A stretch of 64,000 nucleotides of DNA from Thamnaconus septentrionalis (taxonomy: Eukaryota > Chordata > Actinopteri > Tetraodontiformes > Monacanthidae). The position numbers were made by a program, and so were the translations under genes. Numbering within the stretch: position 1 is the first letter of the stretch; the number at the start of each line of letters is the position of its first letter. The stretch covers positions 19,284,501-19,348,500 of the forward strand of contig CM020513.1 in NCBI GenBank assembly GCA_009823395.1. Direction: 5' to 3'. This document shows positions 4,520 to 29,930 of this stretch, piece by piece. The notes beneath the pieces were generated by a model. It had not been told where the DNA came from, did no database searches, and saw only the letters and a program-made list of their open reading frames with translations.

Positions 4520-4925
4520 AAACATGGGAAGATTCAAGATTGAATCAGAGACACTTTCGAGGGATACTTGAGTAAAGAGAGAGCTGCACCATCATCTTTT
4601 TACTTGCGAGCAAAAACAAGGAGTATTTTTTGTGTATAGACTGATTTATTTCCAATGCATTAAACGAAGGTACTCATGTTACTTAATCGGTACATTAAAA
4701 TGAAGATTGTATCAGAAATAAGATAATGTAATTTGTGTGACACATCTCTATAAACATTGCTGACTTCTGGCGAAAATAACAATCAGACCTTGCATAAAAA
4801 TAAACTTCCTTTGGAAAAATACTTGAGACTCCATATACACTACAAAAAATATAAGTAGCCCTCTACAAACAGAGAACCACTTTCTAACATGGAAAACATT
4901 CTGCATTTCTCTTTAAACAAATAAT
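4520..4925 (-). repeat. Decayed U4-array spacer unit at the left edge
   Basis: The order of motifs matches the spacer between U4 copies but is strongly diverged: a degraded 'gaatcagagacac...gagcaaaaac' block, then 'gatttatttccaa', then 'gagaaccactttctaac...acattctgca'. This part lies downstream of U4 copy 1 on the minus strand and includes a 3'-box-like block at about 4900-4919. No U4 body survives to its left, so it looks like the eroded end of the array. Confidence 0.6.
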
Positions 4926-5070
4926 TGAGTCTCCTTAGAGACCATCAAAAATTGCCAAAGCCGACTGTTTTTCAAGTCGTCATGGCGGGGTATTGGGTAA
5001 AGTTTTCAACTAGCAATAATCGCGCCTCGGATAAACCTCATAGGCTACGATACTGCCACTGCGCAAAGCT
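4926..5070 (-). ncRNA. U4 snRNA copy 1
   Basis: The minus strand starts AGCTTTGCGCAGTGGCAGTA, the vertebrate U4 5' end that pairs with U6. It contains the 5' stem-loop with GAGGTTTATCCGAGG, the CCCAATACCCCGCC stretch, an Sm-type site AATTTTTGA and a 3' hairpin GGTCTC..GAGAC. The 3' stem is better paired here (GAGACTC) than in most copies. A PSE-like block lies 39-59 bp upstream (5109-5129). It looks intact. Confidence 0.93.
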
Positions 5071-5513
5071 GACGAGGCTCTGTTACTCAGAGAGTACTAT
5101 GATGGGTGCACAGGAACCACTGTGATGGTTGTGAATTGGGCGTGGTTTCCAGTAAAAGACAAGACCAAATGTGTAGTGGAGATGGGCATTCTGCTTACAG
5201 TATAGGTTTCATTTTGTACCTGGGCTGACTCAAGACTGAACCAGACCTGAGATACTGGAGCAAAAAGAGAGGTGCACCTCAAAACACTTGACTTCATCAT
5301 TTTGCTCATTAGCCTAATAAAGGTTTATTTTGCACACAAAACAGATTTATTTCCAAGTTATAAAGAACAGTTACACAGATTCCTCTGGAAAATGTATCAA
5401 GTAAAGCTGTGAAAGAGATAAGGCAATGTAGCTTCTCAAACATAGTCCACTTCAAACAGAAAACCAGTTTCCAACAAGTGAAAATATTTTGCGTTACTTT
5501 TTAAACAAATAAC

Positions 5514-5658
5514 TGAGCCTCCTTAGAGACCATCAAAATTGCCAAAGCATACTATTTTTCAAGTCGTCATGGGCGGGGTATTGGGTAAAGTTTTCAACTA
5601 GCAATAATCGCGCCTCGGATAAACCTCATAGGCTACGATACTGCCACTGCGCAAAGCT
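5514..5658 (-). ncRNA. U4 snRNA copy 2 (divergent)
   Basis: It has the full U4 5' domain. It carries one U fewer in the Sm-type site (AATTTTGA), an extra base in the CCCCGCC stretch, and a changed block before the 3' hairpin (AGTATGC in place of AGTCGGC). The promoter is present. It may be a weak or non-functional copy. Confidence 0.85.
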
Positions 5659-6106
5659 GATGAGTCCCTATTACTCAGAAAGTACTATGATGGGTGCACA
5701 GGAACCACTGTGATGGTTGTGAAGTGGGTGTGGTTTCCAGTAAATGACAAGACCAAATGTGTAGTGGAGATGGGCATTCTGCTCACAAGTATAGGTTTCA
5801 TTTTGTACCTGGGCTGACTCAAGACTGAACCAGACCAGAGATACTGGAGCAAAAAAGAGATGCTCCTCAAAACATTTGACTTCATCATTTTACTCATTAG
5901 CCTAAAAAGGCTTACGTAGCATGCCAGATAAGATTCATGTCCAACGCATAAAGAACAGCTAAACAGATTCCGATGGAAAATGTATCAGGTAAAGCTGTGA
6001 AAGACATAAGGCAATAAAGCTTCTCAAACATAATCCTCTTCAAACATGGAACCAATTTCCAACAATGTGAAGACATTCTGCATTCTTTTTAGACACATAA
6101 CTCAGC

Positions 6107-6248
6107 CAGCCTCCTTAGAGACCATCAAAATTGCCAGAGCCGACTGTTTTCAAGTCGTCATGGCGGGGTATTGGGTAAAGTTTTCAACTAGCAATAATCG
6201 CGCCTCGGATAAACCTCATAGGCTACGATACTGCCACTGCGCAAAGCT
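6107..6248 (-). ncRNA. U4 snRNA copy 3 (variant)
   Basis: The 5' domain is intact. The Sm-type site is one U shorter, the central region has one A fewer, and the 3' flank has a 4-base duplication (cagccagcc on the plus strand). Copy 7, its partner in the four-unit duplication, shares the GGCTCTGGC change. Confidence 0.87.
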
Positions 6249-6658
6249 GATGAGTCCCTATTACTCAGAAAGTACTATGATGGGTGCACAGGAACCACTG
6301 TGATGGTTGATGGGTGAAAAACAAGAAAAAACGTGGACTTGAGAAGGGAATTCTGCTCACAATATAGCTTAGCCTTTTCATTTTGTACCTGGGCTGACTC
6401 AAGACTGAACCAGACCAGAGATACTGGAGCAAAAAGAGAGTTGCACCTCAAAACATTTGACTTCATCATTTTACTCGTTAGCCTAAAAAAAGGCTTACTT
6501 CACGTGCAAAACAGATTCGTGTCCAACGTATAAAGAACAGCTAAACAGATTCCTATGGAATATCTATTAGGTAAAGCTGTGAAAGACATAAGGCAATAAA
6601 GCTTCTCAAACATAATCATCTTCAAACATGGAACCAATTTCCAACAATGTGAAGACAT

Positions 6659-6678
6659 TCTGCATTCTTTTTAGACAC
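6659..6678 (-). terminator. 3' box of U4 copy 4 (class GTGTCTAAAAAG)
   Basis: The minus strand reads GTGTCTAAAAAGAATGCAGA, beginning about 6 bases after the U4 3' end. It resembles the vertebrate snRNA 3'-end formation signal (GTTT..AAAR..AGA). It is present in this form in units that share the 'agacacataac' flank. Confidence 0.65.
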
Positions 6679-6683
6679 ATAAC

Positions 6684-6828
6684 TGAGCCTCCTTAGAGAC
6701 CATCAAAAATTGCCAAAGCCGACTGTTTTTCAAGTCGTCATGGCGGGGTATTGGGTAAAGTTTTCAACTAGCAATAATCGCGCCTCGGATAAACCTCATA
6801 GGCTACGATACTGCCACTGCGCAAAGCT
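6684..6828 (-). ncRNA. U4 snRNA copy 4
   Basis: This is a consensus-type copy with the standard 5' end, the 5' stem-loop, a GAAAAACAGTCGGC central block, AATTTTTGA and a GGTCTCTAAGGAGGC hairpin. A 3' box lies at 6659-6678 and a PSE-like block at 6867-6887. It looks intact. Confidence 0.93.
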
Positions 6829-6866
6829 GATGAGTCCCTATTACTCAGAAAGTACTATGATGGGTG

Positions 6867-6887
6867 CACAGGAACCACTGTGATGGT
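6867..6887 (-). promoter_or_regulatory. PSE-like element of U4 copy 4 (representative)
   Basis: On the minus strand this reads ACCATCACAGTGGTTCCTGT plus G and lies 39-59 bp upstream of the U4 start, the usual place for the proximal sequence element of vertebrate snRNA genes. A nearly identical block stands at the same offset in the other units, although the rest of the spacer varies. No TATA box sits between it and the gene, which fits RNA polymerase II transcription. Confidence 0.6.
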
Positions 6888-7270
6888 TGTGAATTGGGCG
6901 TGGTTTCCAGTGAAAGACAAGACAAAACGTGGACTTGAGAAGGGAATTCTGCTCACAATATAGGTTAGCCTTTTCAATTTGTACCTGGGCTGACTCAAGA
7001 CTGAACCAGACCAGAGATACTGGAGCAAATAGAGAGATGCTCCTCAAAACATTTGACTTCATCATTTTACTCATTAGCCTAAAAAGGCTTACGTAGCATG
7101 CCAGATAAGATTCATGTCCAACGCATAAAGAACAGATTCCTACGGAATATCTATAAGGTAAAGCTGTGAAAGACATAGGGCAATAAAGCTTCTCAAACAT
7201 AGCCATCTTCAAACATGGAACCAATTTCCAACAATGTGAAGACATTCTGCATTCCCTTTAGACACATAAC

Positions 7271-7415
7271 TTAGCCTCCTTGGAGACCATCAAAAATTGC
7301 CAAAGCCGACTGTTTTTCAAGTCGTCATGGCGGGGTATTGGGTAAAGTTTTCAACTAGCAATAATCGCGCCTCGGATAAACCTCATAGGCTACGATACTG
7401 CCACTGCGCAAAGCT
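7271..7415 (-). ncRNA. U4 snRNA copy 5
   Basis: This is a full-length U4. The 3' hairpin loop variant (GGTCTCCAAGGAGGC) is shared with copies 9, 14 and 19. The Sm-type site and the 5' end are standard. Confidence 0.93.
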
Positions 7416-7830
7416 GACGAGTCCTTGTTACTCAGAGAGTACTATGGTGGGTGCACAGGGACCACTGTGATGGTTGTGAAGTGGGCGTGGTTTCCAGTAA
7501 AAGACAAGACCAAATGTGTAGTGGAGATGGGCATTCTGCTTACAGTATAGGTTTCATTTTGTACCTGGGCTGACTCAAGACTGAACCAGACCAGAGATAC
7601 TGGAGCAAAAAGAGAGGTGCACCTCAAAACACTTGACTTCATCATTTTACTCATTAGCCTAATAAAGGTTTATTTTGCACACAAAACAGATTTATTTCCA
7701 AGTTATAAAGAACAGTTACACAGATTCCTCTGGAAAATGTATCAAGTAAAGCTGTGAAAGAGATAAGGCAATGTAGCTTCTCAAACGTAGTCCACTTCAA
7801 ACAGAAAACCAGTTTCCAACAGTGAAAATA

Positions 7831-7850
7831 TTTTGCGTTACTTTTTAAAC
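7831..7850 (-). terminator. 3' box of U4 copy 6 (class GTTTAAAAAG)
   Basis: The minus strand reads GTTTAAAAAGTAACGCAAAA, a closer match to the vertebrate 3' box core. It is present in units with the 'aaacaaataa' flank (for example copies 2, 6, 11, 20 and 21). Confidence 0.65.
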
Positions 7851-7857
7851 AAATAAC

Positions 7858-8002
7858 TGAGCCTCCTTAGAGACCATCAAAAATTGCCAAAGCCGACTGT
7901 TTTTCAAGTCGTCATGGCGGGGTATTGGGTAAAGTTTTCAACTAGCAATAATCGCGCCTCGGATAAACCTCATAGGCTACGATACTGCCACTGCGCAAAG
8001 CT
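7858..8002 (-). ncRNA. U4 snRNA copy 6
   Basis: This is a consensus full-length copy. Its 3' box is of the GTTTAAAAAG class (7831-7850). It is the counterpart of copy 2 in the four-unit duplication but lacks the lesions of copy 2. Confidence 0.93.
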
Positions 8003-8445
8003 GATGAGTCCCTATTACTCAGAAAGTACTATGATGGGTGCACAGGAACCACTGTGATGGTTGTGAATTGGGTGTGGTTTCCAGTAAATGACAAGACCAA
8101 ATGTGTAGTGGAGATGGGCATTCTGCTTACAGTATAGGTTTCATTTTGTACCTGGGCTGACTCAAGACTGAACCAGACCAGAGATACTGGAGCAAAAAGA
8201 GAGATGCTCCTCAAAACATTTGACTTCATCATTTTACTCATTAGCCTAAAAAGGCTTACGTAGCATGCCAGATAAGATTCATGTCCAACGCATAAAGAAC
8301 AGCTAAACAGATTCCGATGGAAAATGTATCAGGTAAAGCTGTGAAAGACATAAGGCAATAAAGCTTCTCAAACATAATCCTCTTCAAACATGGAACCAAT
8401 TTCCAACAATGTGAAGACATTCTGCATTCTTTTTAGACACATAAC

Positions 8446-8590
8446 TCAGCCTCCTTAGAGACCACCAAAAATTGCCAGAGCCGACTGTTTTTCAAGTCGT
8501 CATGGCGGGGTATTGGGTAAAGTTTTCAACTAGCAATAATCGCGCCTCGGATAAACCTCATAGGCTACGATACTGCCACTGCGCAAAGCT
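8446..8590 (-). ncRNA. U4 snRNA copy 7
   Basis: This is a full-length U4. The base after the Sm-type U tract gives AATTTTTGG, and GGCTCTGGC replaces GGCTTTGGC. The promoter is intact. Confidence 0.92.
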
Positions 8591-9023
8591 GATGAGTCCC
8601 TATTACTCAGAAAGTACTATGATGGGTGCACAGGAACCACTGTGATGGTTGATGGGTGAAAAACAAGAAAAAACGTGGACTTGAGAAGGGAATTCTGCTC
8701 ACAGTATAGGTTAGCCTTTTCATTTTGTACCTGGGCTGGCTCAAGACTGAACCAGACCAGAGATACTGGAGAAAAAGAGAGTTGCACCTCAAAACATTTG
8801 ACTTCATCATTTTACTCGTTAGCCTAAAAAGGCTTACTTCACGTGCAAAACAGATTAAGTGTCCAACGTATAAAGAACAGCTAAACAGATTCCTATGGAA
8901 TATCTATTAGGTAAAGCTGTGAAAGACATAAGGCAATAAAGCTTCTCAAACATAATCATCTTCAAACATGGAACCAATTTCCAACAATGTGAAGACATTC
9001 TGCATTCTTTTTAGACACATAAC

Positions 9024-9169
9024 TGAGCCTCCTTAGAGACCATCAAAAATTGCCAAAGCCGACTGTTTTCAAGTCGTCATGGCGGGGTATTGGGTAAAGT
9101 TTTCAACTAGCAATAATCGCGCCTCGGATAAACCTCATAGGCTCACGATACTGCCACTGCGCCAAAGCT
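9024..9169 (-). ncRNA. U4 snRNA copy 8, 5'-end insertions (likely pseudogene)
   Basis: Two single-base insertions fall in the most conserved part. The 5' end reads AGCTTTGGCGCAGTGGC, inside the U6-pairing stem, and the 5' stem-loop reads CGTGAGCC in place of CGTAGCC. Its surroundings are nearly identical to copy 4 (shift 2341 bp), so the lesions are recent. It is expected to impair U4/U6 pairing if transcribed. Confidence 0.88.
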
Positions 9170-9611
9170 GATGAGTCCCTATTACTCAGAAAGTACTATG
9201 ATGGGTGCACAGGAACCACTGTGATGGTTGTGAATTGGGCGTGGTTTCCAGTGAAAGACAAGACAAAACGTGGACTTGAGAAGGGAATTCTGCTCACAAT
9301 ATAGGTTAGCCTTTTCAATTTGTACCTGGGCTGACTCAAGACTGAACCAGACCAGAGATACTGGAGCAAATAGAGAGATGCTCCTCAAAACATTTGACTT
9401 CATCATTTTACTCATTAGCCTAAAAAGGCTTACGTAGCATGCCAGATAAGATTCATGTCCAACGCATAAAGAACAGATTCCTACGGAATATCTATAAGGT
9501 AAAGCTGTGAAAGACATAGGGCAATAAAGCTTCTCAAACATAGCCATCTTCAAACATGGAACCAATTTCCAACAATGTGAAGACATTCTGCATTCCCTTT
9601 AGACACATAAC

Positions 9612-9755
9612 TTAGCCTCCTTGGAGACCATCAAAAATTGCCAAAGCCGACTGTTTTCAAGTCGTCATGGCGGGGTATTGGGTAAAGTTTTCAACTAGCA
9701 ATAATCGCGCCTCGGATAAACCTCATAGGCTACGATACTGCCACTGCGCAAAGCT
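9612..9755 (-). ncRNA. U4 snRNA copy 9
   Basis: This is a full-length U4 with one A fewer in the central GAAAA block. It is otherwise like copy 5, its duplicate about 2340 bp away. The 5' end and Sm-type site are standard. Confidence 0.92.
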
Positions 9756-10164
9756 GACGAGTCCTTGTTACTCAGAGAGTACTATGGTGGGTGCACAGGG
9801 ACCACTGTGATGGTTGTGAAGTGGGCGTGGTTTCCAGTAAAAGACAAGACCAAATGTGTAGTGGAGATGGGCATTCTGCTTACAGTATAGGTTTCATTTT
9901 GTACCTGGGCTGACTCAAGACTGAACCAGACCAGAGATACTGGAGCAAAAAGAGAGGTGCACCTCAAAACATTTGACTTCATCATTTTACTCATTAGCCT
10001 AAAAAAAGGCTTACTTCGCGTGCAAAAACAGATTCGTGTTCAACGTATAAGGTAAAGCTGTGAAAGAGACAAGGCAATAAAGCTTCTCAAAGATAGCCCT
10101 CTTCAAACAGTGAACTAACTTCCAACAATGTGAAGACATTCTGCATTCTTTTTAGACACATAAC

Positions 10165-10310
10165 TCAGCCTCCTTGGAGACTATCAAAAATTGCCAAAGC
10201 CGACTATTTTTCAAGTCGTCATGGCGGGGTATTGGGTAAAGTTTTCAACTAGCAATAATCGCGCCTCGGATAAACCTCGTGAGGCTACGATACTGCCACT
10301 GCGCAAAGCT
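10165..10310 (-). ncRNA. U4 snRNA copy 10 (k-turn variant)
   Basis: This U4 is changed in the 5' stem-loop: GCCTCACGAGG replaces GCCTATGAGG. This replaces the U that is flipped out in the known 15.5K/SNU13-binding k-turn and adds a base. The central block is the GAAAAATAGTC class. It belongs to a short, 555 bp unit. Confidence 0.9.
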
Positions 10311-10743
10311 GACGAGTCCCTGTTACTCAGAGAGTACTATGGTGGGTGCACAGGAACCACTGTGATGGTTGATGGGTGAAAAACAAGACAAAACGTGGAC
10401 TTGAGAAGGGAATTCTGCTCACAATATAGGTTAGCCTTTTCATTTTGTACCTGGGCTGACTCAAGACTGAACCAGACCAGAGATACTGGAGCAAAAAGAG
10501 TGATGCTCCTCAAAACATTTGACTTCATCATTTTACTCATTAGCCTAAAAAGGCTTACGTTGCATGCCAGATAAGGTTCATGTCCAACGCATAAAGAACA
10601 GCTAAACAGATTCCTATGGAATATCTATAAGGTAAAGCTGTGAAAGACATAAGGCAATAAAGCTTCTCAAACATAATCCTCTTCAAACAGAAAACCAGTT
10701 TCCAACAGTGAAAATATTTTGCATTGCTTTTTAAACAAATAAT

Positions 10744-10888
10744 TGAGCCTCCTTAGAGACCATCAAAAATTGCCAAAGCCGACTGTTTTTCAAGTCGTCA
10801 TGGCGGGGTATTGGGTAAAGTTTTCAACTAGCAATAATCGCGCCTCGGATAAACCTCATAGGCTACGATACTGCCACTGCGCAAAGCT
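10744..10888 (-). ncRNA. U4 snRNA copy 11
   Basis: This is a consensus full-length copy with the standard 5' end, Sm-type site and 3' hairpin. The spacer to its right is the class found after copies 9 and 15. Confidence 0.93.
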
Positions 10889-11297
10889 GACGAGTCCCTG
10901 TTACTCAGAGAGTACTATGGTGGGTGCACAGGGACCACTGTGATGGTTGTGAAGTGGGCGTGGTTTCCAGTAAAAGACAAGACCAAATGTGTAGTGGAGA
11001 TGGGCATTCTGCTTACAGTATAGGTTTCATTTTGTACCTGGGCTGACTCAAGACTGAACCAGACCAGAGATACTGGAGCAAAAAGAGAGGTGCACCTCAA
11101 AACATTTGACTTCATCATTTTACTCATTAGCCTAAAAAAAGGCTTACTTCGCGTGCAAAAACAGATTCGTGTTCAACGTATAAGGTAAAGCTGTGAAAGA
11201 GACAAGGCAATAAAGCTTCTCAAAGATAGCCCTCTTCAAACAGTGAACTAACTTCCAACAATGTGAAGACATTCTGCATTCTTTTTAGACACATAAC

Positions 11298-11443
11298 TCA
11301 GCCTCCTTGGAGACTATCAAAAAATTGCCAAAGCCGACTATTTTTCAAGTCGTCATGGCGGGGTATTGGGTAAAGTTTTCAACTAGCAATAATCGCGCCT
11401 CGGATAAACCTCATAGGCTACGATACTGCCACTGCGCAAAGCT
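11298..11443 (-). ncRNA. U4 snRNA copy 12
   Basis: This is a full-length U4 with one extra U in the Sm-type tract (AATTTTTTGA) and the GAAAAATAGTC central block. It sits in a 555 bp unit like copies 10, 16 and 18. Confidence 0.92.
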
Positions 11444-11878
11444 GACGAGTCCCTGTTACTCAGAGAGTACTATGGTGGGTGCACAGGAACCACTGTGATG
11501 GTTGATGGGTGAAAAAACAAGACAAAACGTGGACTTGAGAAGGGAATTCTGCTCACAATATAGGTTAGCCTTTTCATTTTGTACCTGGGCTGACTCAAGA
11601 CTGAACCAGACCAGAGATACTGGAGCAAAAAGAGTGATGCTCCTCAAAACATTTGACTTCATCATTTTACTCATTAGCCTAAAAAGGCTTACGTTGCATG
11701 CCAGATAAGGTTCATGTCCAACGCATAAAGAACAGCTAAACAGATTCCTATGGAATATCTATAAGGTAAAGCTGTGAAAGACATAAGGCAACAAAGCTTC
11801 TCAAACATAATCCTCTTCAAACATGGAACCAATTTCCAACAATGTGAAGACATTCTGCATTCTTTTTAGACACATAAC

Positions 11879-12023
11879 TCAGCCTCCTTAGAGACCACCA
11901 AAAATTGCCAAAGCCGACTGTTTTTCAAGTCGTCATGGCGGGGTATTGGGTAAAGTTTTCAACTAGCAATAATCGCGCCTCGGATAAACCTCATAGGCTA
12001 CAATACTGCCACTGCGCAAAGCT
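11879..12023 (-). ncRNA. U4 snRNA copy 13
   Basis: This is a full-length U4 with AATTTTTGG at the Sm-type site. One change in the 5' stem-loop (ATTGTAGCC in place of ATCGTAGCC) would leave a G-U pair. Confidence 0.92.
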
Positions 12024-12458
12024 GACGAGTCCCTGTTACTCAGAGAGTACTATGGTGGGTGCACAGGAACCACTGTGATGGTTGTGAAGTGGGTGTGGTT
12101 TCCAGTAAAAGACGAGACAAAACGTGGACTTGAGAAGGGAATTCTGCTTACAGTATAGGTTTCATTTTGTACCTGGGCTGACTCAAGACTGAACCAGACC
12201 AGAGATACTGGAGCAAAAGGAGAGATGCTCCTCAAAACATTTGACCTCATCATTTTACTCATTAGCCTAAAAAGGCTTATGTTGCATGCCAGATAAGATT
12301 CATGTCCAACGCATAAAGAACAGATTCCTATGGAATATCTATAAGGTAAAGCTGTGAAAGACATAGGGCAATAAAGCTTCTCAAACATAGCCCTCTTCAA
12401 ACATGGAACCAATTTCCAACAATGTGAAGACATTCTGCATTCCCTTTAGACACATAAC

Positions 12459-12603
12459 TTAGCCTCCTTGGAGACCAGCAAAAATTGCCAAAGCCAACTG
12501 TTTTTCAAGTCGTCATGGCGGGGTATTGGGTAAAGTTTTCAACTAGCAATAATCGCGCCTCGGATAAACCTCATAGGCTACGATACTGCCACTGCGCAAA
12601 GCT
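12459..12603 (-). ncRNA. U4 snRNA copy 14
   Basis: This is a full-length U4. CAGTTGGC replaces CAGTCGGC, and one base after the Sm-type tract is changed (TTTTTGC). The 5' end is standard. Confidence 0.92.
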
Positions 12604-13053
12604 GATGAGTCCCTATTACTCAGAAAGTACTATGATGGGTGCACAGGAACCACTGTGATGGTTGTGAATTGGGCGTGGTTTCCAGTGAAAGACAAGACAA
12701 AACGTGGACTTGAGAAGGGAATTCTGCTCACAATATAGGTTAGCCTTTTCATTTTGTACCTGGGCTGACTCAAGACTGAACCAGACCAGAGATACTGGAG
12801 CAAAAGGAGAGATGCTCCTCAAAACATTTGACTTCATCATTTTACTCATTAGCCTAAAAAGGCTTACGTAGCATGCCAGATAAGATTCATGTCCAACGCA
12901 TTAAGAACAGCTAAACAGATTCCGATGGAAAATGTATCAGGTAAAGCTGTGTAAGACATAAGGCAATAAAGCTTCTCAAACATAATCCTCTTCAAACATG
13001 GAACCAATTTCCAACAATGTGAAGACATTCTGCATTCATTTTAGACACATAAC

Positions 13054-13198
13054 TCAGCCTCCTTAGAGACCACCAAAAATTGCCAAAGCCGACTGTTTTT
13101 CAAGTCGTCATGGCGGGGTATTGGGTAAAGTTTTCAACTAGCAATAATCGCGCCTCGGATAAACCTCATAGGCTACGATACTGCCACTGCGCAAAGCT
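13054..13198 (-). ncRNA. U4 snRNA copy 15
   Basis: This is a full-length U4 with AATTTTTGG. Its promoter and spacer match those of copy 9 at a shift of 3443 bp. Confidence 0.93.
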
Positions 13199-13607
13199 GA
13201 CGAGTCCTTGTTACTCAGAGAGTACTATGGTGGGTGCACAGGGACCACTGTGATGGTTGTGAAGTGGGCGTGGTTTCCAGTAAAAGACAAGACCAAATGT
13301 GTAGTGGAGATGGGCATTCTGCTTACAGTATAGGTTTCATTTTGTACCTGGGCTGACTCAAGACTGAACCAGACCAGAGATACTGGAGCAAAAAGAGAGG
13401 TGCACCTCAAAACATTTGACTTCATCATTTTACTCATTAGCCTAAAAAAAGGCTTACTTCGCGTGCAAAAACAGATTCGTGTTCAACGTATAAGGTAAAG
13501 CTGTGAAAGAGACAAGGCAATAAAGCTTCTCAAAGATAGCCCTCTTCAAACAGTGAACTAACTTCCAACAATGTGAAGACATTCTGCATTCTTTTTAGAC
13601 ACATAAC

Positions 13608-13752
13608 TCAGCCTCCTTGGAGACTATCAAAAATTGCCAAAGCCGACTATTTTTCAAGTCGTCATGGCGGGGTATTGGGTAAAGTTTTCAACTAGCAATA
13701 ATCGCGCCTCGGATAAACCTCATAGGCTACGATACTGCCACTGCGCAAAGCT
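13608..13752 (-). ncRNA. U4 snRNA copy 16
   Basis: This is a full-length U4 of the GAAAAATAGTC class. It matches copy 10 at a shift of 3442 bp but keeps the normal TATGAGG 5' stem-loop. Confidence 0.93.
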
Positions 13753-14186
13753 GACGAGTCCCTGTTACTCAGAGAGTACTATGGTGGGTGCACAGGAACC
13801 ACTGTGATGGTTGATGGGTGAAAAACAAGACAAAACGTGGACTTGAGAAGGGAATTCTGCTCACAATATAGGTTAGCCTTTTCATTTTGTACCTGGGCTG
13901 ACTCAAGACTGAACCAGACCAGAGATACTGGAGCAAAAAGAGTGATGCTCCTCAAAACATTTGACTTCATCATTTTACTCATTAGTCTAAAAAGGCTTAC
14001 GTTGCATGCCAGATAAGGTTCATGTCCAACGCATAAAGAACAGCTAAACAGATTCCTATGGAATATCTATAAGGTAAAGCTGTGAAAGACATAAGGCAAC
14101 AAAGCTTCTCAAACATAATCCTCTTCAAACATGGAACCAATTTCCAACAATGTGAAGACATTCTGCATTCTTTTTAGACACATAAC

Positions 14187-14331
14187 TCAGCCTCCTTAGA
14201 GACCACCAAAAATTGCCAAAGCCGACTGTTTTTCAAGTCGTCATGGCGGGGTATTGGGTAAAGTTTTCAACTAGCAATAATCGCGCCTCGGATAAACCTC
14301 ATAGGCTACGATACTGCCACTGCGCAAAGCT
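14187..14331 (-). ncRNA. U4 snRNA copy 17
   Basis: This is a full-length U4 with AATTTTTGG. The promoter-proximal part matches copy 6, while the distal spacer matches the short-unit class. The unit is therefore a mosaic. Confidence 0.93.
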
Positions 14332-14740
14332 GATGAGTCCCTATTACTCAGAAAGTACTATGATGGGTGCACAGGAACCACTGTGATGGTTGTGAATTGG
14401 GTGTGGTTTCCAGTAAATGACAAGACCAAATGTGTAGTGGAGATGGGCATTCTGCTTACAGTATAGGTTTCATTTTGTACCTGGGCTGACTCAAGACTGA
14501 ACCAGACCAGAGATACTGGAGCAAAAAGAGAGATGCTCCTCAAAACATTTGACTTCATCATTTTACTCATTAGCCTAAAAAAAGGCTTACTTCGCGTGCA
14601 AAAACAGATTCGTGTTCAACGTATAAGGTAAAGCTGTGAAAGAGACAAGGCAATAAAGCTTCTCAAAGATAGCCCTCTTCAAACAGTGAACTAACTTCCA
14701 ACAATGTGAAGACATTCTGCATTCTTTTTAGACACATAAC

Positions 14741-14885
14741 TCAGCCTCCTTGGAGACTATCAAAAATTGCCAAAGCCGACTATTTTTCAAGTCGTCATGG
14801 CGGGGTATTGGGTAAAGTTTTCAACTAGCAATAATCGCGCCTCGGATAAACCTCATAGGCTACGATACTGCCACTGCGCAAAGCT
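14741..14885 (-). ncRNA. U4 snRNA copy 18
   Basis: This is a full-length U4 of the GAAAAATAGTC class in a 554 bp unit. The 5' end, Sm-type site and 3' hairpin are standard. Confidence 0.93.
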
Positions 14886-15320
14886 GATGAGTCCCTATTA
14901 CTCAGAAAGTACTATGATGGGTGCACAGGAACCACTGTGATGGTTGATGGGTGAAAAACAAGCCAAAACGTGGACTTGAGAAGGGAATTCTGCTCACAGT
15001 GTAGGTTGGCCTTTTCATTTTGTACCTGGGCTGGCTCAAGACTGAACCAGACCAGAGATACTGGAGCAAAAAGAGAGGTGCACCTCAAAACATTTGACTT
15101 CATCATTTTACTCGTTAGCCTAAAAAAAGGCTTACTTCACGTGCAAAACAGATTCGTGTCCAACGTATAAAGAACAGCTAAACAGATTCCTATGGAATAT
15201 CTATTAGGTAAAGCTGTGAAAGACATAAGGCAATAAAGCTTCTCAAACATAATCCTCTTCAAACATGGAACCAATTTCCAACAATGTGAAGACATTCTGC
15301 ATTCCCTTTAGACACATAAC

Positions 15321-15465
15321 TTAGCCTCCTTGGAGACCATCAAAAATTGCCAAAGCCGACTATTTTTCAAGTCGTCATGGCGGGGTATTGGGTAAAGTTT
15401 TCAACTAGCAATAATCGCGCCTCGGATAAACCTCATAGGCTACGATACTGCCACTGCGCAAAGCT
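15321..15465 (-). ncRNA. U4 snRNA copy 19
   Basis: This is a full-length U4 that combines the GAAAAATAGTC central block with the 3' hairpin loop variant of copies 5, 9 and 14. Confidence 0.93.
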
Positions 15466-15918
15466 GATGAGTCCCTATTACTCAGAAAGTACTATGATGG
15501 GTGCACAGGAACCACTGTGATGGTTGTGAATTGGGCGTGGTTTCCAGTGAAAGACAAGACAAAACGTGGACTTGAGAAGGGAATTCTGCTCACAATATAG
15601 CTTAGCCTTTTCATTTTGTACCTGGGCTGACTAAAGACTGAACCAGACCAGAGATACTGAAGCAAAAAGAGGGATGCTCCTCAAAACATTTGACTTCATC
15701 ATTTTACCTATTAGCCTAAAAAAAAAGTCTTACTTCGCGTGCAAAAACAGATTCGTGTCCAACATATAAAGAACAGCTAAACAGGTTCCTATGGAAAATG
15801 TATCAAGTAAAGCTGTGAAAGAGATAAGGCAATGTAGCTTCTCGAAAGTAGTCCACTTCAAACAGAAAACCAGTTTCCAACAGTGAAAATATTTTGCATT
15901 GCTTTTTAAACAAATAAT

Positions 15919-16063
15919 TGAGTCTCCTTAGAGACCATCAAAAATTGCCAAAGCCGACTGTTTTTCAAGTCGTCATGGCGGGGTATTGGGTAAAGTTTTC
16001 AACTAGCAATAATCGCGCCTCGGATAAACCTCATAGGCTACGATACTGCCACTGCGCAAAGCT
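15919..16063 (-). ncRNA. U4 snRNA copy 20
   Basis: This is a full-length U4 with the better-paired 3' stem (GAGACTC) also seen in copies 1 and 22. It looks intact. Confidence 0.93.
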
Positions 16064-16507
16064 GATGAGTCCCTATTACTCAGAAAGTACTATGATGGGT
16101 GCACAGGAACCACTGTGATGGTTGTGAATTGGGCGTGGTTTCCAGTGAAAGACAAGACAAAACGTGTAGTGGAGATGGGCATTCTGCTTACAGTATAGGT
16201 TTCATTTTGTACCTGGGCTGACTCAAGACTGAACCAGACCTGAGATACTGGAGCAAAAAGAGAGGTGCACCTCAAAACACTTGACTTCATCATTTTACTC
16301 ATTAGCCTGACAAAAAAGCTTATTTTGCACACAAAACAGATTTATTTCCAAGTTATAAAGAACAGTTACACAGATTCCTCTGGAAAATGTATCAAGTAAA
16401 GCTGTGAAAGAGATAAGGCAATGTAGCTTCTCAAATGTAGTCCACTTCAAACAGAAAACCAGTTTCCAACAGTGAAAATATTTTGCGTTACTTTTTAAAC
16501 AAATAAC

Positions 16508-16652
16508 TGAGCCTCCTTCGAGACCATCAAAAATTGCCAAAGCCGACTATTTTTCAAGTCGTCATGGCGGGGTATTGGGTAAAGTTTTCAACTAGCAATA
16601 ATCGCGCCTCGGATAAACCTCATAGGCTACGATACTGCCACTGCGCAAAGCT
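16508..16652 (-). ncRNA. U4 snRNA copy 21
   Basis: This is a full-length U4. The 3' hairpin loop is changed (GGTCTCGAAGGAGGC). The Sm-type site and 5' end are standard. Confidence 0.93.
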
Positions 16653-17082
16653 GATGAGTCCCTATTACTCAGAAAGTACTATGATGGGTGCACAGGAACC
16701 ACTGTGATGGTTGATGGGTGAAAAACAAGACAAAACGTGGACTTGAGAAGGGAATTCTGCTCACAGTATAGGTTAACCTTTTCATTTTGTACCTGGGCTG
16801 ACTCAAGACTGAACCAGACCAGAGATACTGGAGCAAAAAGAGAGATGCTCCTCAAAACATTTGATCATCATTTTACTCATTAGCCTAATAAAGGCTTATT
16901 TTGCATTCAAAACAGATTTATTTCCAAGGTATAAAGAACAGTCTAAACAGATTCCTATGGAAAATGTATCAGGTAAAGCCGTGAAAAACATAAGGCCATG
17001 TAGCTTCTCAAACATAGTCCACTTCAAACAGAACCAGTTTCCAAAAGTTAATATATTTTGCATTACTTTTTAGACAAATAAT

Positions 17083-17227
17083 TGAGTCTCCTTGGAGACC
17101 ATCAAAAATTGCCAAAGCCGACTATTTTTCAAGTCGTCATGGCGGGGTATTGGGTAAAGTTTTCAACTAGCAATAATCGCGCCTCGGATAAACCTCATAG
17201 GCTATGATACTGCCACTGCGCAAAGCT
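17083..17227 (-). ncRNA. U4 snRNA copy 22 (array end)
   Basis: This is a full-length U4 whose 5' stem-loop carries ATCATAGCC (G to A, breaking one pair). Only about 80 bp of upstream spacer remains before unrelated sequence. The copy keeps the PSE-like block but lacks the more distal upstream region that all other copies have. Confidence 0.92.
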
Positions 17228-20034
17228 GACGAGTCCCTGTTACTCAGAGAGTACTATGGTGGGTGCACAGGGACCACTGTGATGGTTGTGAAGTGGGCAC
17301 ACAGAACATTTGACTTAATTACAGTATGGTCTTTATCATCAATTCAGAAACTTGAAACTGTATGCAATACTTGAAACTAAATGGACTTTATCTATATGTA
17401 TAACCTCCATTTAAAGTTTAAAGGTAGTCTGCTTGCAGCAACTTCATTGTTCAGCAGTGAAATTACGTTACATTTGCTTTCTCTTTCACATTCCTGAAAG
17501 TCCTTCAAGAGCCATGGGGTTTCTTGAGGACATGGACTGAATATTGCTTTAGAACCCCTCCTGGGCTAGATGTTATAGCTGTTAGACATGACTGATTCTA
17601 AGGATAAAACAGATGACAAAAAGAGATTCTCAGTGGTGGGTAGCAGACTTGAACACAGTGACACAGCAAGATCAACAACACAGTAACGCAGGAGGTTTAA
17701 TCAATATCAGCCCCGGTGGAGATGAACACAAGCAAAACAAAGTCAATGTGGCTAAATTCAGGTGAGTTTAGCAAGGGAAGCGCTGATACAAATAAAGGTC
17801 GAATCTTCATTTCAATGTAAGTGACTTGTTTTTTCTGGCTTAAACTGATGCATTTCACAACATTTTAGCAGTTATCAAGGTGCTATAATAGCTGAGCACC
17901 ACTTTGTCACATACTTCCTCTTATTCATCAAAGAGAGAATCTGTTTTGTCAAAGTTGTATGTAAAATAGTTTTTCCTCAACAGCAAGATAAAACTATATT
18001 TTATCAAGCCTAGTTTTAATCTTGCTTCTGGTTCAGATGAAGCTATTTATCCAGGCACTGAGTGGTCCATTACAGTATTTGGAACAAAATGAATCATCAA
18101 CAATGACAATCTCAAGACTTCTTGTCACCTAGTGAAATCTAATGAGAGTTTTTAATTTAAAGAAGGATGAAAAAAATTTTCTGTCTTATGTGTGCTTAAT
18201 AGTCACTTGACGTTCACAAAACAGAAATGTTTGCAATGCATACGTTGTGTCTTTGTTTTGTTCGCCAACTCCAGCAGAGTCCGTGAGGACGTGCACTAGG
18301 GCAGGTTTATTTTTAACGTGAAGCGAAAAACTACGACATCTAGTGGTGGAATGACAACAGCTTAATACAAATCGTGGAGAAAACACAGGTAGCATTGGTA
18401 TTGTTAACATGCTATGAAAAGGTTTGGCAACCACTGACTACTGTCAGTCTTGGGCAGTTATGTGAACAATGGTTGGACATTCAAAGTGATCTCAGCTTCC
18501 CAAACTGAAGACCCACCCAGTACATTTTTATTCTTGCTTTGAGGAAGCCAGAACAGAAGGGAAGAGACGATATGTAGCACTGTGAACGGAAAGTCGGAAA
18601 CTGATTCAGCTGCAGATCCACACACACACAAACACACGTTGGAGAAACGCTGTGACTCTCTGGCAGACAGGCTGAAGGCAGAGATTCTAGTGCAGGAGCT
18701 CCACAAAGTAACTCTGGGGGTTTAGCACTGTGGCACGGCAGACTGAAGGAGGAGATTTAACACACAGAGGCACTCCAGGCAGGCGGTGTCAAGCAGTCAG
18801 ATCAGAGAGAAGAGAGGAGACACCATTAATGCCACAGATGGAAGGTCTGGGAGCAAACAGTCAGACTACTTGTCACGCTGCACAGCCAACCAGGCACAGG
18901 GATGGATGGATGGATGGATAAATGGATGGACAGAATGGGGGAGCAGAGAAACCAATGGGGTTTTGAGGAGAGACCTACTTAGCTCGAGAATCCAAACTGT
19001 GGAATGTTTACCAACTGTGTTGGGATTAGTTCACATATCAATTTGGAAAGTAGAAATTGGGATCATTGCAAAGGAAAGCTAGACACTAACATCACTGCTG
19101 TAAATACTGCAGCTCAATCTGCCATTTTATGTCACTCTGTACTTTCTCTAACGTGCTAAGTGACGTGTTACCAACAGAACTTTACCTTGATGCTGTGCAG
19201 TGGAGGCTGCAAGCAGCACTTATCTGAACATTTGCGAGATTGTGCTAATACATTTCCAAGGTTGTGAGGACTGTTGAACTGCATCTGAGTCACACACAAC
19301 AGACTTTGTGTTTATGTAAGCCCCATTTACACTCAGGCACAGACAGAGCCACACAGGAATCAGTCTAAATAACAATGGTTCAAATAGTGCAGTTTCTATA
19401 ATATTTTCAAATGCAAATGACTTCTCAGTGCACATTAAAAGGTTTCATGGAAACACACTGAATGACATTTCCAATGGCATGCCATATCTGTACTAGCGCG
19501 GTAATTGTGCTCACGCTGACAATCTGAACCCTGATGGTGGACATTGTGCAGAATTAGCATTAACATATTTGTACCGCCAAGATAAGCGTGTTACTAGGCA
19601 GACCCCAAGTCCTCAGCACCGCCTCTGAGTCGCAATCATGACTGAACACGAAGTACAAAAGAAAAGAAAAAAGTGTTGTTGGCACAACAATGAAGACGGA
19701 AGACCAGGCCTGACTTGACTTGTGAAATCCTGTAAGCAATGGGCAACGAATCTAGAGAGACTCAAACTGGTTCACATGATGTCTTCTTGCCAACTTTATT
19801 GAAAGCTTGTTACAACTGGAATGCTTTTACTCTCGACCACCTTTGTCAACAGGGAAACATCTCACTTGAATATGAGTGCGTGCCCATCTACAATCCTTTT
19901 GACTGTGGTCGCTCGCACCCATTTCCTTCCACCACCTTGATTATGCACTTGTGGGCAAAGTAATGCTTGAAGAGACATTAGTGAATGAGGCGGATTTGTG
20001 GTATTCCTTTCAACTGCAGAAATATGCCCATAAA

Positions 20035-26224: not shown

Positions 26225-28195
26225 TAGTGTTCACTGAAAACCCTAGAATAGAAAAAGAACAAATAGATTTGAGGATTTTCTCACATAAGTTACAAGTTAT
26301 GAAAAATTGCAACGCACAGACGAAAGCGTTAAGCGTTGGGGAAGTGTATTTTCATTTGAGACATGACCATTAATCCATTGCAGCTTGCAGCTTGTTGCTG
26401 CTGGTAAGCAGTGCTCACAAGTGCTTACGCGCACAAAACAGAATGTTTTCATTAGCATAAAGTATCGCATAAACCGAACAGTGCATCTCATCCAGTGAAG
26501 TTACATGGTGCAGTCATATTTGATTTTATTTTTCAATATTGCAATATCCCCTGGTAACAAAGGGTTTTGTAATACAGGTTCTAATCTTAGTCCTCTTCGG
26601 TAAAATGTGTATCTCAGAAGCTTCTTCTTCTTGTTCTTGTGTTTGGGTGGGACTACATTGTAGTGATAGTCCTGCTTTGAATTGGAAGCCAGTCTACAAG
26701 AATTGAATGAGTGAATAAACCTCCCTCACAGCCAGTTCTCGCTCTCGTTGCCTTCCTCACAAATAGACTAGTCCGCGAAAGCTCCGGGGGTTGAAATCTC
26801 TAACTAAGTGTGTGATCAAGCCCAGGGGACAGACTAAACCAGGAGAACAGCAGCCTTACAATTGACTCCATCGTCAGGGTGTGGGCCTATTTTGACCCTC
26901 TTACAGCAGCTGCCTGCCTGAAGACACCATATTTTATTATAGCTGCATTGTCTGCTACTTGCCCTACTTTATTTGCCTCAGCCTTCTCTGGAAGCACAAC
27001 ACTTAAAAGTTTCATTCACTGCAAGAGCACTGAAGAGAAACATTTCCACTGAAAATCTCTAAGAAATAACAGGTCAGGGTAAGCGACTGGACCAAAGCTT
27101 CGAAAGGTTATCGGCTGTTTCCCCTCTCGGTTGGACTGTTGTTGTCAAGATACCTGATCAGGATGGGCGGTGTATTCAAAACAGCACTGTGATTCAGTGT
27201 GAATTTGGATGACTTTGAACTTTGAGACTCTTTGTTATGAATGGGCAGGGACCAACTGCCAACTTTTCAGTCACAAAACGATACCCGCTAACCACACCCA
27301 TAATACCACAATATTGAATCAAGGCAATCATATGTTTGTAAATTTAAAATATTTCGCCTTTGACTCATAAAAAAGATCGCAGTCAAAGCCATGCTTGTAT
27401 TTTCACTCCTTTTCTTCGGACCTTCTCTTTCGGAGAAGGTCCTTAGTTTTTGTGAAGCCGCTCCACCTCAGTTCTGTTATCCCCTCCCACTGATTCGAAA
27501 GAACATCTTAGTCGCTAGGCAATGTCCGCAGGAAAAAACAGCGGAGATGTTGACGTCCAACCAAGCTATTTTCCCGCAGCGAGCCGGTCAGGGCTTTAGT
27601 AATGAGAGCCTTGGGACCTGGCTGAGCCTCAGAGTGTGTGAGCGAGTGTGTGCGAGAGCGTGAGAGTGCGTGTGTGCGTGCAGGGCGGGAGAGATTGTGT
27701 GTATCACTGCTGACTGACTGTGTTTCAGTTGGAAGGGAACCAGCTGTGACCATGTGTTTAAGGATTTGTTGTGCGCCAGGGTGTGTATCATCACGCGACT
27801 TGTATGTCACGAGTGTGTGTGCGTCCGCGCGCAGGTGCAGGTGTGCGTGTGAATGTGAATGTAGTCCATGGCCTCACAGCTCACATCATGGTCGGGAGTG
27901 TGAAGCCGGCGATCAGCACGAACAGGCCCTTCTCTCCATCCTCTGGTGCCCTCACTTGCCTCCTCGCCACCTTCGTCCCTCCCTTCTTCCCTCACTGGTG
28001 CCCCCTCCTACCCGTCTCCTCCCTAATCACAGGGCTAATTGACTCAGCCAGATTTGGCAACAGGCTTATTAGTGTCATTTCACGCAGCAAGGAATGACCT
28101 GTGCAGGCAGTCAAGGCGGTCTGCAATATTTCGTTCATCCAGTCTGATTTACCGCCACCACGCATCACATAATTCACAGAATTTTTCATCAAGTA

Positions 28196-28250
28196 GTTCC
28201 ATCCTTCCATTTTCAATACCCGCTTATTCCTGAACTCAGGGTTGGAGGGT
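28196..28250 (-). repeat. SINE tail remnant
   Basis: On the minus strand it reads CCCTGAGTTCAGGAATAAGC followed by a degraded AAAATGGAAGGATGG end. That is the 3' tail of the fish tRNA-headed SINE seen in fuller form at 31380-31735. Only the tail is left. Confidence 0.6.
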
Positions 28251-28567
28251 TCAAGCAGTTCAAATTTTCAATTTTACATATTGTTCAATGACGTGGACTT
28301 TTTACTTTATGAATCCGTAGCTTCAACAGCTAAAATTTAAATCCACTTTAAAATTAGAGCAAATACCACCACTCTGTTGCAGCCATACATTTTCAGCAAG
28401 TTTAAAGTTTAAAAACAGGCTCAGGACGTGCAACCCTGATGATATCCTGCTTGTTTGCTGACCCAAACCTCCACTGATGCCAGTGCAATTTAACGCCCTG
28501 CCCTGGTGATGCTCCCAACTGCAGGTAAACAAGGTGCTTGTCGTGACTGTGGGTGCATTGTCTCTAG

Positions 28568-28570
<3 letters not shown>

Positions 28571-28628
<58 letters not shown>
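28571..28628. repeat. (GT)29 microsatellite beside the znrf1 splice donor
   Basis: Fifty-eight bases of uninterrupted GT on the plus strand, which is CA in the direction of znrf1 transcription. It begins about 20 bases after the exon 1 splice donor. Confidence 0.95.
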
Positions 28629-28629
<1 letters not shown>

Positions 28630-28649
28630 GGCCTGCCGGCCCTCCTTAC

Positions 28650-29058
28650 CGCTGTGGGCGCTGAACCAGCGGGGTGCGATGTGCAGGGGCAAGGTGTCAG
28701 CCAGCGACCCCCTGGATCCCAGGTAGAGCACCCCGTCCGTGTGGTGCCCTCCGCCCCCACTGTCCTGGTAGCCGCCACTGTGGGTGGCAGCGGTGGTGGT
28801 GGTGGTGCCAGTGCCCCCTGACCCCCCTCCGGCCCGCTCCGAGTCCGTCCCTCTCGGAGCGTAGAAGCCGAAGGGCACGCCGGGGCTGTGCTCGATGCCC
28901 ATGCCGGCCACGGAGCTCACCGAGCGGCTCCGCAGGCCCATGGTGCCGCTCGGCCGGTAGTGGCCGAAGTGGGCCGAGGGAGGCACCGCGCTGTCATCAG
29001 TGGAGACGCCGGGAAAAGCACCCCGGGGCCGACCCGCCGTGCTCTGCTTTCCCCCCAT
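28650..29058 (-). CDS. znrf1: znrf1 coding exon 1 (E3 ubiquitin ligase ZNRF1), 5' part only
   Basis: This exon starts at an ATG at 29056-29058 and reads MGGKQSTAGRPRGAFPGVST, nearly the same as the N-terminus of vertebrate ZNRF1, a membrane-associated E3 ubiquitin ligase of endosomes and lysosomes that acts in neurons and Schwann cells. The glycine at position 2 is the N-myristoylation site known in the family. The exon ends after 136 codons with LPLHIAPRWFSAHS and one spare base, then a donor (G|gtaagg). Human ZNRF1 continues with the C-terminal zinc-finger and RING domains, whose exons I could not find anywhere in the window. They are presumably left of position 1. A Gly/Thr-rich stretch (TGTTTTTAATH) replaces the Ser/Gly linker of the mammalian protein. 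ldhd lies upstream in the same orientation, as in human 16q23.1. Confidence 0.93.
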
Positions 29059-29930
29059 CCAGAGCCGGGGAAGGCGAGCGGGTGGGTGGGGGGTGGAGGA
29101 GGAGGCTCCGGGGGTGGAAGCGGGAGGGTCGCTCGCCTCGGTCCGCCAAAAAAGGGTCGAGAGAGACCGAAGCAGGCTGTCACCCCCCCTCCCCTCGCTC
29201 CTGTCTGTCTCTTGGCCCGCCTTGGCCCGCCTGCGCTGCTCGTCTATCAGTGCGTGTCTCGGCAGGCTCGTCAGCTCTGACTCCCCGCAGACGCAACAGC
29301 CCGTTTCCCTGCCGAGCGGAACATGAGCCCGCCCCGACGTCTGGATTCAAGCTCGCCCGCAGAACAAAACCTCCGATGGCCGCCCGAGCCGGATGACACC
29401 CAAGACGCCGGAATTGACAGACAGATGCGCGGCGACACCTCGGCTTTGCGTCCCCCCGGGGGTGATTTAGGACGGCTGTATCATCGCAGGCGGGCCGCGG
29501 CTACAGCAGCAGCAGCAGCGGCAGCAGCAGCAGCAACACGTCTACCCGCCCGCTTCCAAATCACAGCAGCGCCGCAATGTTCGCTCCTCTGCCCTCGCCT
29601 CATCTGATCTCAGACATCGTGACAACTGTTGCTGTGTGCGTCTCACCGCCACAAATACGACAGTCTGTCTCCCGCCGACAATTATGACGTCGTTCCGTCC
29701 CGTCCCCCCCTAAAAAAAACGCCGGTATGGTCTCACCGGCTACGGTGGTCTCCTAGCAGCGGTCGCCGTCCAGCCCCGTAGATCGGGGTCACAGTTAAAC
29801 CGCTCCCCGCCGCGCTCTGATCGGCGCTCCGCTGCTCCTGCGCTCCGCCTGCCGCCGCCGCTGCTGTTGTTGTTGTTGCTGCTGCCGCTGGCAGACAATG
29901 GAGGCGCACAGTGCGCAAACTCCGAGTATT
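29059..29930 (-). promoter_or_regulatory. CpG-rich promoter and 5' UTR of znrf1
   Basis: The sequence upstream of the znrf1 ATG is very GC- and CpG-rich up to about 29930, where it switches abruptly to AT-rich DNA. It contains CAG/CTG triplet runs (29513-29535 and about 29860-29885). The long open frames on both strands here are a side effect of base composition. I cannot place the transcription start. Confidence 0.65.
29513..29535. repeat. (CAG)n triplet run
   Basis: An interrupted CAG run inside the znrf1 CpG island. It has no protein match. Confidence 0.8.

What the first reader, a model, noticed from the sequence alone, without database searches (positions are those of the whole stretch)
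4926..17310. A 22-copy tandem array of U4 spliceosomal snRNA genes
All 22 units carry a complete U4-like RNA on the minus strand: a U6-pairing 5' end AGCTTTGCGCAGTGGC (interrupted only in copy 8), the 5' stem-loop, an Sm-type site and a 3' hairpin. A PSE-like block sits 39-59 bp upstream and a 3' box just downstream. Tandem snRNA arrays are well known for U1, U2 and 5S-type loci. A large dedicated U4 array in a vertebrate is much less familiar to me. Most copies look functional, so this could be the main source of U4 in this species.
Basis: partly seen in the sequence, partly recalled or inferred. Interest (0 to 1): 0.88.

Follow-up and report, generated by a model that had tools for sequence, protein, structure and literature searches.

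The report
Fish-like tandem array of U4 genes
In what is likely a fish genome, a 12-kilobase stretch holds 22 tandem copies of the gene for U4, a core RNA of the gene-splicing machinery, and they spell a U4 that differs at three fixed letters from the three other well-preserved copies found in that genome; the array would likely supply U4 in bulk, perhaps to eggs and early embryos.

Summary
Rfam's U4 model hits 22 of 22 units, all full length (108-128 bits). U6 pairing is unbroken in 21 of 22 and a PSE sits at -61 in 22 of 22. Only 2 of 80 columns vary in RNA nt 1-80 against 84 of 291 in spacer (p=2.5e-8), so the copies look constrained, not dead; 17 of 22 are well preserved.

The search found one other U4 locus, 18.9 Mb away, with three intact genes and one decayed copy. 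All 22 array copies differ from those three at nt 102, 112 and 127. The array is a separate U4 isoform, born by DNA duplication of a U4 gene with its promoter and reshuffled in multi-unit blocks.

Tandem snRNA genes are not rare here: U5 has a longer, decaying array and U1/U2 have linked clusters. I file it as a new member of a known kind. Bulk supply to oocytes and early embryos is my favoured role, untested.

The parts
4853..17298 (-). the whole array, from 75 bp past the 3' end of copy 1 to 71 bp upstream of copy 22
   Evidence: edges by blastn of units against the window
4930..5070 (-). U4 copy 1 (RNA identical to copy 20)
   Evidence: 127.7 bits
4946..4953 (-). Sm site of copy 1 (AATTTTTG)
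5116..5131 (-). PSE of copy 1, -61 to -46; same motif and place in all 22 units
4900..4918 (-). 3' box-like element of copy 1
   Evidence: box consensus recalled
5518..5658 (-). U4 copy 2: central stem damaged, four U in Sm site
   Evidence: 108.3 bits
6110..6248 (-). U4 copy 3: four U in Sm site, one A fewer in a loop
   Evidence: 115.0 bits
6688..6828 (-). U4 copy 4 (RNA identical to copies 6 and 11)
   Evidence: 126.1 bits
7275..7415 (-). U4 copy 5
   Evidence: 125.4 bits
7862..8002 (-). U4 copy 6
   Evidence: 126.1 bits
8450..8590 (-). U4 copy 7
   Evidence: 122.9 bits
9028..9169 (-). U4 copy 8: extra G in the U6-pairing region, extra G in the 5' stem-loop, one A fewer; the rest of the unit equals unit 4
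   Evidence: 110.3 bits
9616..9755 (-). U4 copy 9: one A fewer in a loop
   Evidence: 125.5 bits
10169..10310 (-). U4 copy 10: extra C and T to C in the 5' stem-loop
   Evidence: 115.2 bits
10748..10888 (-). U4 copy 11
   Evidence: 126.1 bits
11302..11443 (-). U4 copy 12: six U in Sm site
   Evidence: 121.0 bits
11883..12023 (-). U4 copy 13: C22 to T in the 5' stem
   Evidence: 123.5 bits
12463..12603 (-). U4 copy 14
   Evidence: 122.4 bits
13058..13198 (-). U4 copy 15 (RNA identical to copy 17)
   Evidence: 126.2 bits
13612..13752 (-). U4 copy 16 (RNA identical to copy 18)
   Evidence: 127.5 bits
14191..14331 (-). U4 copy 17
   Evidence: 126.2 bits
14745..14885 (-). U4 copy 18
   Evidence: 127.5 bits
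15325..15465 (-). U4 copy 19
   Evidence: 126.3 bits
15923..16063 (-). U4 copy 20
   Evidence: 127.7 bits
16512..16652 (-). U4 copy 21
   Evidence: 125.6 bits
17087..17227 (-). U4 copy 22: G23 to A in the 5' stem; no array spacer upstream of its PSE
   Evidence: 122.7 bits

Best explanation
This is a single-locus tandem array of 22 U4 snRNA gene copies, 17 of them well preserved, that spells its own U4 isoform and would likely be read by RNA polymerase II, one transcript per unit, to supply U4 in bulk. Each unit carries a PSE at -61, no visible TATA box, a U4 of about 141 nt and a 3' box-like element. In most copies the RNA keeps the U6-pairing stems, the 5' stem-loop and the Sm site, so it is predicted to enter ordinary U4/U6 and tri-snRNP. 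The array arose by DNA duplication of a U4 gene with its proximal promoter, from the same family as the dispersed U4 genes at C13:414-416 kb (inferred from promoter homology). It has since been reshuffled in multi-unit blocks while selection held the RNA. Expression is inferred, not shown. By analogy with the U4 forms that switch in Xenopus and chicken development and with the maternal snRNA genes of zebrafish, the most likely time of heavy use is oocyte growth and early embryogenesis, with the dispersed genes as the somatic set.
For: Full-length U4 in 22 of 22 units. RNA nt 1-80 vary at 2 of 80 columns against 84 of 291 in spacer (p=2.5e-8); pi is 0 in nt 1-16 and 56-80 against 0.08-0.09 in the three spacer stretches (21 units, unit 22 left out). 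U4/U6 stem I forms in 22 of 22 and stem II unbroken in 21 of 22 with this genome's own U6. A PSE model from 18 promoters outside the array finds the array PSE at -61 in 22 of 22, score 7.2 against a maximum of 5.2 over 9782 spacer positions. The promoter of unit 4 aligns with those of D1, D3, D4 and a U4 fragment (0 of 1000 shuffles reach the score) but not with D2 (481 of 1000) or with 7 U1/U2/U5/U6 promoters (254-930 of 1000). Three differences are fixed between 22 array copies and 3 intact dispersed copies: nt 102, 112, 127. Block duplications: units 1-4 with 5-8, and 9/11/15/17 alternating with 10/12/16. Developmental precedent, passages only: PMC4291461, PMC11075544.
Against: No expression data. 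In PMC11075544 the zebrafish genes called maternal are U1 and U6; the two U4 named there are somatic. No consistent octamer (DSE): 0 of 22 units have an exact ATGCAAAT and 4 of 22 a one-mismatch form at varying distance; the dispersed genes lack an exact one too (0 of 4, one with one mismatch), so this does not set the array apart; SPH was not scanned. The GC box at about -80 is present in only 14 of 22. The array PSE scores below 17 of the 18 outside promoters, and its conservation is marginal (2 of 23 columns vary, p=0.049). Nt 118-141 (p=0.24), -39 to -1 (p=0.18) and the 3' flank (p=0.67) are not significantly more conserved than spacer. Five of 22 copies are damaged, perhaps partly by assembly error. 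The U-A to U-U change at nt 112 opens the central stem slightly. No pair shows covariation (0 of 36).
Confidence: 0.6

Rival explanations
1. The array is the constitutive, tissue-wide main source of U4, kept large for dosage, and the three dispersed genes are minor.
For: 22 of the 25 U4 matches over 100 bits are in the array. The RNA is under constraint. U5 has an array too, so a high dose of two tri-snRNP RNAs could be a general need.
Against: The dispersed genes encode a slightly more consensus-like U4. Their RNAs D2-D4 are nearly identical while their promoters have diverged: of three pairs tested, D1-D3 and D3-D4 align beyond 1000 shuffles and D2-D3 does not. They look like old genes kept by selection, not leftovers.
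Confidence: 0.27
2. The array is mostly silent: a U4-derived tandem repeat drifting towards satellite DNA, with few working copies.
For: 5 of 22 copies are damaged. No consistent octamer was found. The U5 array on C3 shows such a course, its scores falling, with ups and downs, from 93 to 43 bits.
Against: RNA nt 1-80 vary far less than the spacers (p=2.5e-8). The PSE core is identical in 22 of 22. The lowest U4 score is still 108 bits against a cut-off of 46.
Confidence: 0.1
3. Copy number and the damaged copies are assembly artefacts of a smaller array.
For: Units 4 and 8 are identical over 589 columns except for three 1-base indels, all in the RNA. That is the pattern expected if repeated RNA parts were polished badly.
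Against: Many neighbouring units have clearly different spacers (identity down to about 76%, gaps counted, unit 22 aside), and non-array sequence flanks the array on one 22.5-Mb contig. At most the indels and the closest duplicates are in doubt.
Confidence: 0.03

Closest known systems
Zebrafish maternal versus somatic snRNA genes (Pagano et al. preprint 10.1101/858944, not held; known only through passages of PMC11075544)
   Same: Two kinds of genes for one snRNA in one fish genome, one kind multicopy and clustered
   Different: There the clustered maternal types named are U1 and U6, and the two U4 sequences named are somatic; here U6 has three full-score copies and U4 is arrayed. No expression data here.
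[quoted passage not shown] 1988; known only through passages of PMC4291461)
   Same: Two vertebrate U4 isoforms; [quoted passage not shown]
   Different: A 22-copy single-locus array is not described in the passages seen
Linked U1/U2 snRNA gene clusters of fishes, e.g. European hake (PMC4696792, passages)
   Same: Repeated snRNA genes clustered on a fish chromosome; this genome has U1-U2 clusters too
   Different: Here the array is U4 only, one gene per unit of about 0.58 kb
Primate RNU2 tandem array (titles in the reference list of PMC4291461; details recalled)
   Same: Head-to-tail single-snRNA array evolving in concert
   Different: U2 instead of U4; the U4 spacers here are not uniform (mean 81% identity over 22 units, unit 22 included)

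Membership tests
U4 spliceosomal snRNA (RF00015) | covariance model score over the gathering cut-off, full length | tested here: met
   22 of 22, 108.3-127.7 bits, cut-off 46
U4 spliceosomal snRNA (RF00015) | base pairing with U6 (stems I and II) | tested here: met
   stem I 22 of 22; stem II unbroken 21 of 22, copy 8 weaker at -20.0 against -23.8 kcal/mol, with this genome's own U6
U4 spliceosomal snRNA (RF00015) | Sm site and 3' stem-loop | tested here: met
   AAUUUUUG 19 of 22, four U in 2, six U in 1; the six predicted 3'-stem pairs form in all 22 array copies
U4 spliceosomal snRNA (RF00015) | assembles with Sm, 15.5K/PRPF31 and U6 in vivo | not testable with these tools
   no RNA or protein data
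Pol II-type snRNA gene | PSE near -60, no TATA box, 3' box (definition recalled) | tested here: met
   PSE at -61 in 22 of 22; no TATA seen by eye at -25/-30, while the three U6 promoters viewed show a TATA-like stretch; 3' box-like element 21 of 22
Pol II-type snRNA gene | distal enhancer (octamer/SPH; definition recalled) | tested here: inconclusive
   octamer exact 0 of 22, one mismatch 4 of 22; SPH not scanned; CCAC[G/A]CCCA box at about -80 in 14 of 22
Tandem snRNA array in concerted evolution | head-to-tail units sharing fixed differences from outside copies, with block exchange | tested here: met
Maternal (oocyte/embryo) snRNA type | expression in oocyte and early embryo, replaced by a somatic type | not testable with these tools
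   no expression data; only the two-type gene structure is shown

The most novel reading that the evidence does not exclude
The fish has a dedicated second tri-snRNP RNA set: U4 and U5 were each amplified as single-snRNA tandem arrays with array-specific isoforms (U4 changed in its central stem-loop and at the foot of its 3' stem, U5 changed next to its Sm site), which are switched on together in oocytes and replaced by the low-copy set after zygotic genome activation.
Probability: 0.3. Interest if true: 0.65.

Novelty: new member of a known kind. Interest (0 to 1): 0.4.

Why it matters
If used, the array gives a natural two-isoform U4 system in one vertebrate: 22 copies of one form against 3 intact copies of another, separable by three fixed bases. 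That makes the old question whether developmental U4 isoforms differ in function or only in supply directly testable, by read counting and by deleting one locus. It also adds a case for how snRNA arrays are born (gene plus promoter duplicated), kept (RNA constrained, spacer free) and lost (the decaying U5 array in the same genome).

Tried and rejected
Pseudogene array: rejected as the main reading because RNA nt 1-80 are far more conserved than the spacer. Origin by retrotransposition of U4 RNA: rejected, since the promoter is homologous too. Copies of the unit-4 spacer elsewhere: none among the 22 candidates scored. Array continuing past its edges inside the window: no. A shared array-type promoter among U4, U1, U2, U5 and U6 as a sign of common maternal control: not supported; the promoter of U4 unit 4 is no closer to 7 such promoters than shuffled sequence. 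Consistent octamer: not found, in the array or in the dispersed genes. 5S rRNA survey: it hit its candidate ceiling (47 of 47 scored candidates matched), so no statement on 5S types. Covariation over 26 U4 sequences: 0 of 36 predicted pairs changed on both sides, so it neither supports nor opposes the fold. Inverted repeats of 18 bases or more within 600 bases in the array: none. Comparison with other fish genomes and naming the species: not done; the tools used held no other fish genome. A U4 array in a fish in print: not found in the held library (searches; listings read, most papers not opened). Marz et al. 2008, the survey most likely to mention one, was not looked up; it was seen only in a reference list. 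The 'in RNA' counts were partly wrong (the RNA start was not located in gapped rows) and were replaced.
Full report
Observation. Rfam's U4 model finds 22 U4 genes on the minus strand between 4930 and 17227, all full length at 108.3-127.7 bits against a cut-off of 46. Starts are 553-598 bp apart. Homology between units begins at 4853, 75 bp past the 3' end of copy 1, and ends at 17298, 71 bp upstream of copy 22. The spacer of unit 4 was found only here in the 474-Mb assembly (22 of 22 scored candidates).

Are the copies constrained? Over 21 units (unit 22 left out because its spacer is missing), diversity per site is 0.082-0.092 in three spacer stretches, 0.117 in the 3' flank, 0.064 at -39 to -1, 0.034 in the PSE, zero in RNA nt 1-16 and 56-80, 0.005 in the 5' stem-loop, 0.025 in the central stem-loop, 0.045 around the Sm site and 0.07 in the 3' stem-loop. 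Variable columns are 2 of 80 in RNA nt 1-80 against 84 of 291 in spacer (Fisher p=2.5e-8) and 4 of 37 in the central stem-loop (p=0.018). For the PSE the contrast is marginal (2 of 23, p=0.049), and there is none for nt 118-141 (p=0.24), -39 to -1 (p=0.18) or the 3' flank (p=0.67). Against this genome's own U6, stem I forms in 22 of 22 and stem II unbroken in 21 of 22. Nt 1-80 equal those of the three intact dispersed genes in 18 of 22; copies 8, 10, 13 and 22 differ, and copy 2 has a broken central stem. That leaves 17 of 22 that I call well preserved, with copies 3 and 12 counted although their Sm run is one U short or long. The only three differences between units 4 and 8 are 1-base indels inside the RNA, which may be assembly errors (inference).

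Promoter. A PSE model learned from 18 promoters outside the array (U1, U2, U4, U5 and U6 genes of the same genome) places the array PSE at -61, where the Pol II-type genes have theirs (-60 to -64), in 22 of 22 units. Its score of 7.2 lies below 17 of the 18 (leave-one-out 7.8-18.4, with one U6 at -3.5) but above the highest of 9782 spacer positions (5.2). The three U6 genes have theirs at -67 together with a TATA-like stretch; the array shows none by eye. No consistent octamer was found in the array, nor in the four dispersed copies, and a GC box at about -80 is present in 14 of 22. So the genes look like Pol II snRNA genes with an unrecognised distal element; transcription itself is inferred.

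The other U4 locus. The same contig carries four U4 copies on the plus strand at C13:413628-416253, 18.9 Mb away: three intact (130.4, 128.8, 128.5 bits) and one decayed (70.8 bits), plus an 89-bp fragment. All 22 array copies differ from the three intact ones at nt 102 (T to A), 112 (A to T) and 127 (C to T), and 19 of 22 also at nt 141 (A to G). The decayed copy D1 shares T at nt 112 with the array. The nt 112 change replaces a U-A pair by U-U in the central stem. The promoter of array unit 4 aligns with those of D1, D3, D4 and the fragment (0 of 1000 shuffles as good) but not with D2 (481 of 1000) or with 7 promoters of other snRNAs. I infer that the array came from DNA duplication of a U4 gene with its promoter; since the two sets keep fixed differences, they evolve apart.

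How the array evolves. Spacer relationships run in blocks: units 1-4 correspond to 5-8; 9, 11, 15 and 17 are one type, alternating with 10, 12 and 16. Next neighbours of different type are 76-79% alike (units 9-12 and 15-18) while copies two, four or six units away reach 99.8-100% (gaps counted). That is what unequal exchange of multi-unit blocks gives.

Setting in the genome. U5 has 24 matches over the cut-off on C3 at 17.00-17.04 Mb, 20 of them on one strand and mostly about 715 bp apart, falling unevenly from 93 to 43 bits, and 3 tandem copies on C19. The C3 array differs from C19 next to the Sm site (18 of 27 copies viewed). U1 and U2 lie interleaved: 7 U2 and 5 U1 on C12, a pair each on C8 and C19, and further copies on C20, C14, C15, C9, C43 and a few other contigs. 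Of 33 U1 matches I viewed 17: five, on C8, C12 and C19, are identical, and twelve, on C14, C15, C9 and C20, share a variant. Of 40 U2 matches I viewed 7. U6 has three identical full-score copies and four weaker matches. Genome counts are lower bounds by the tool's own statement. For scale, an annotation of the killifish N. furzeri lists 8 U4 (PMC5584509, passages); methods differ.

What it likely does. The array is best read as a bulk source of a second U4 isoform. [quoted passage not shown] Zebrafish keep multicopy maternal U1 and U6 genes, although the two U4 named there are somatic (PMC11075544, passages). On that analogy the array is most likely used in oocytes and early embryos. That step is inference; constitutive supply is the main rival.

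Novelty. Multicopy and linked snRNA genes in fishes are known (PMC4696792, passages; PMC3706591, passages). I found no fish U4 array in the held library (searches; listings only), but the main survey of metazoan snRNA genes (Marz et al. 2008) was not opened. I call it a new member of a known kind, of moderate interest.

Noticed in passing
G000:C3:17000077-17035655 (L064-L067): 24 U5 matches, 20 on the minus strand and mostly about 715 bp apart; scores fall unevenly from 93 to 43 bits along the array, a decaying counterpart of the U4 array
   Followed up: partly
G000:C12:11242742-11257892; C8:10.86 Mb; C19:10.54 Mb; C20, C14, C15, C9: Two U1 sequence types: identical U1 in interleaved U1/U2 genes on C12, C8 and C19 (5 viewed), and a multicopy variant (changed at nt 59, 61, 62; 12 viewed on C14, C15, C9, C20) with near-identical promoters
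   Followed up: partly
window 9028-9169: Copy 8 differs from unit 4 only by three 1-base indels, all in the RNA, over 589 aligned columns; possible polishing error in repeated sequence
   Followed up: partly
L009:9899-9987 (C13:417899-417987): U4 fragment lacking its 5' part but keeping an upstream promoter homologous to the array's
   Followed up: yes
window 38566-38638 and 38847-38917: Two tRNA-Gly(GCC) genes in opposite orientation, about 210 bp apart
   Followed up: no
window 36652-36909: Minus-strand open frame with an FAD_binding_4 domain (PF01565), with a weak, below cut-off FAD-oxidase_C match at 36023-36406
   Followed up: no
window 28001-30000: GC-rich stretch (59% against about 41-44% around it) with a 58-bp GT repeat
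   Followed up: no
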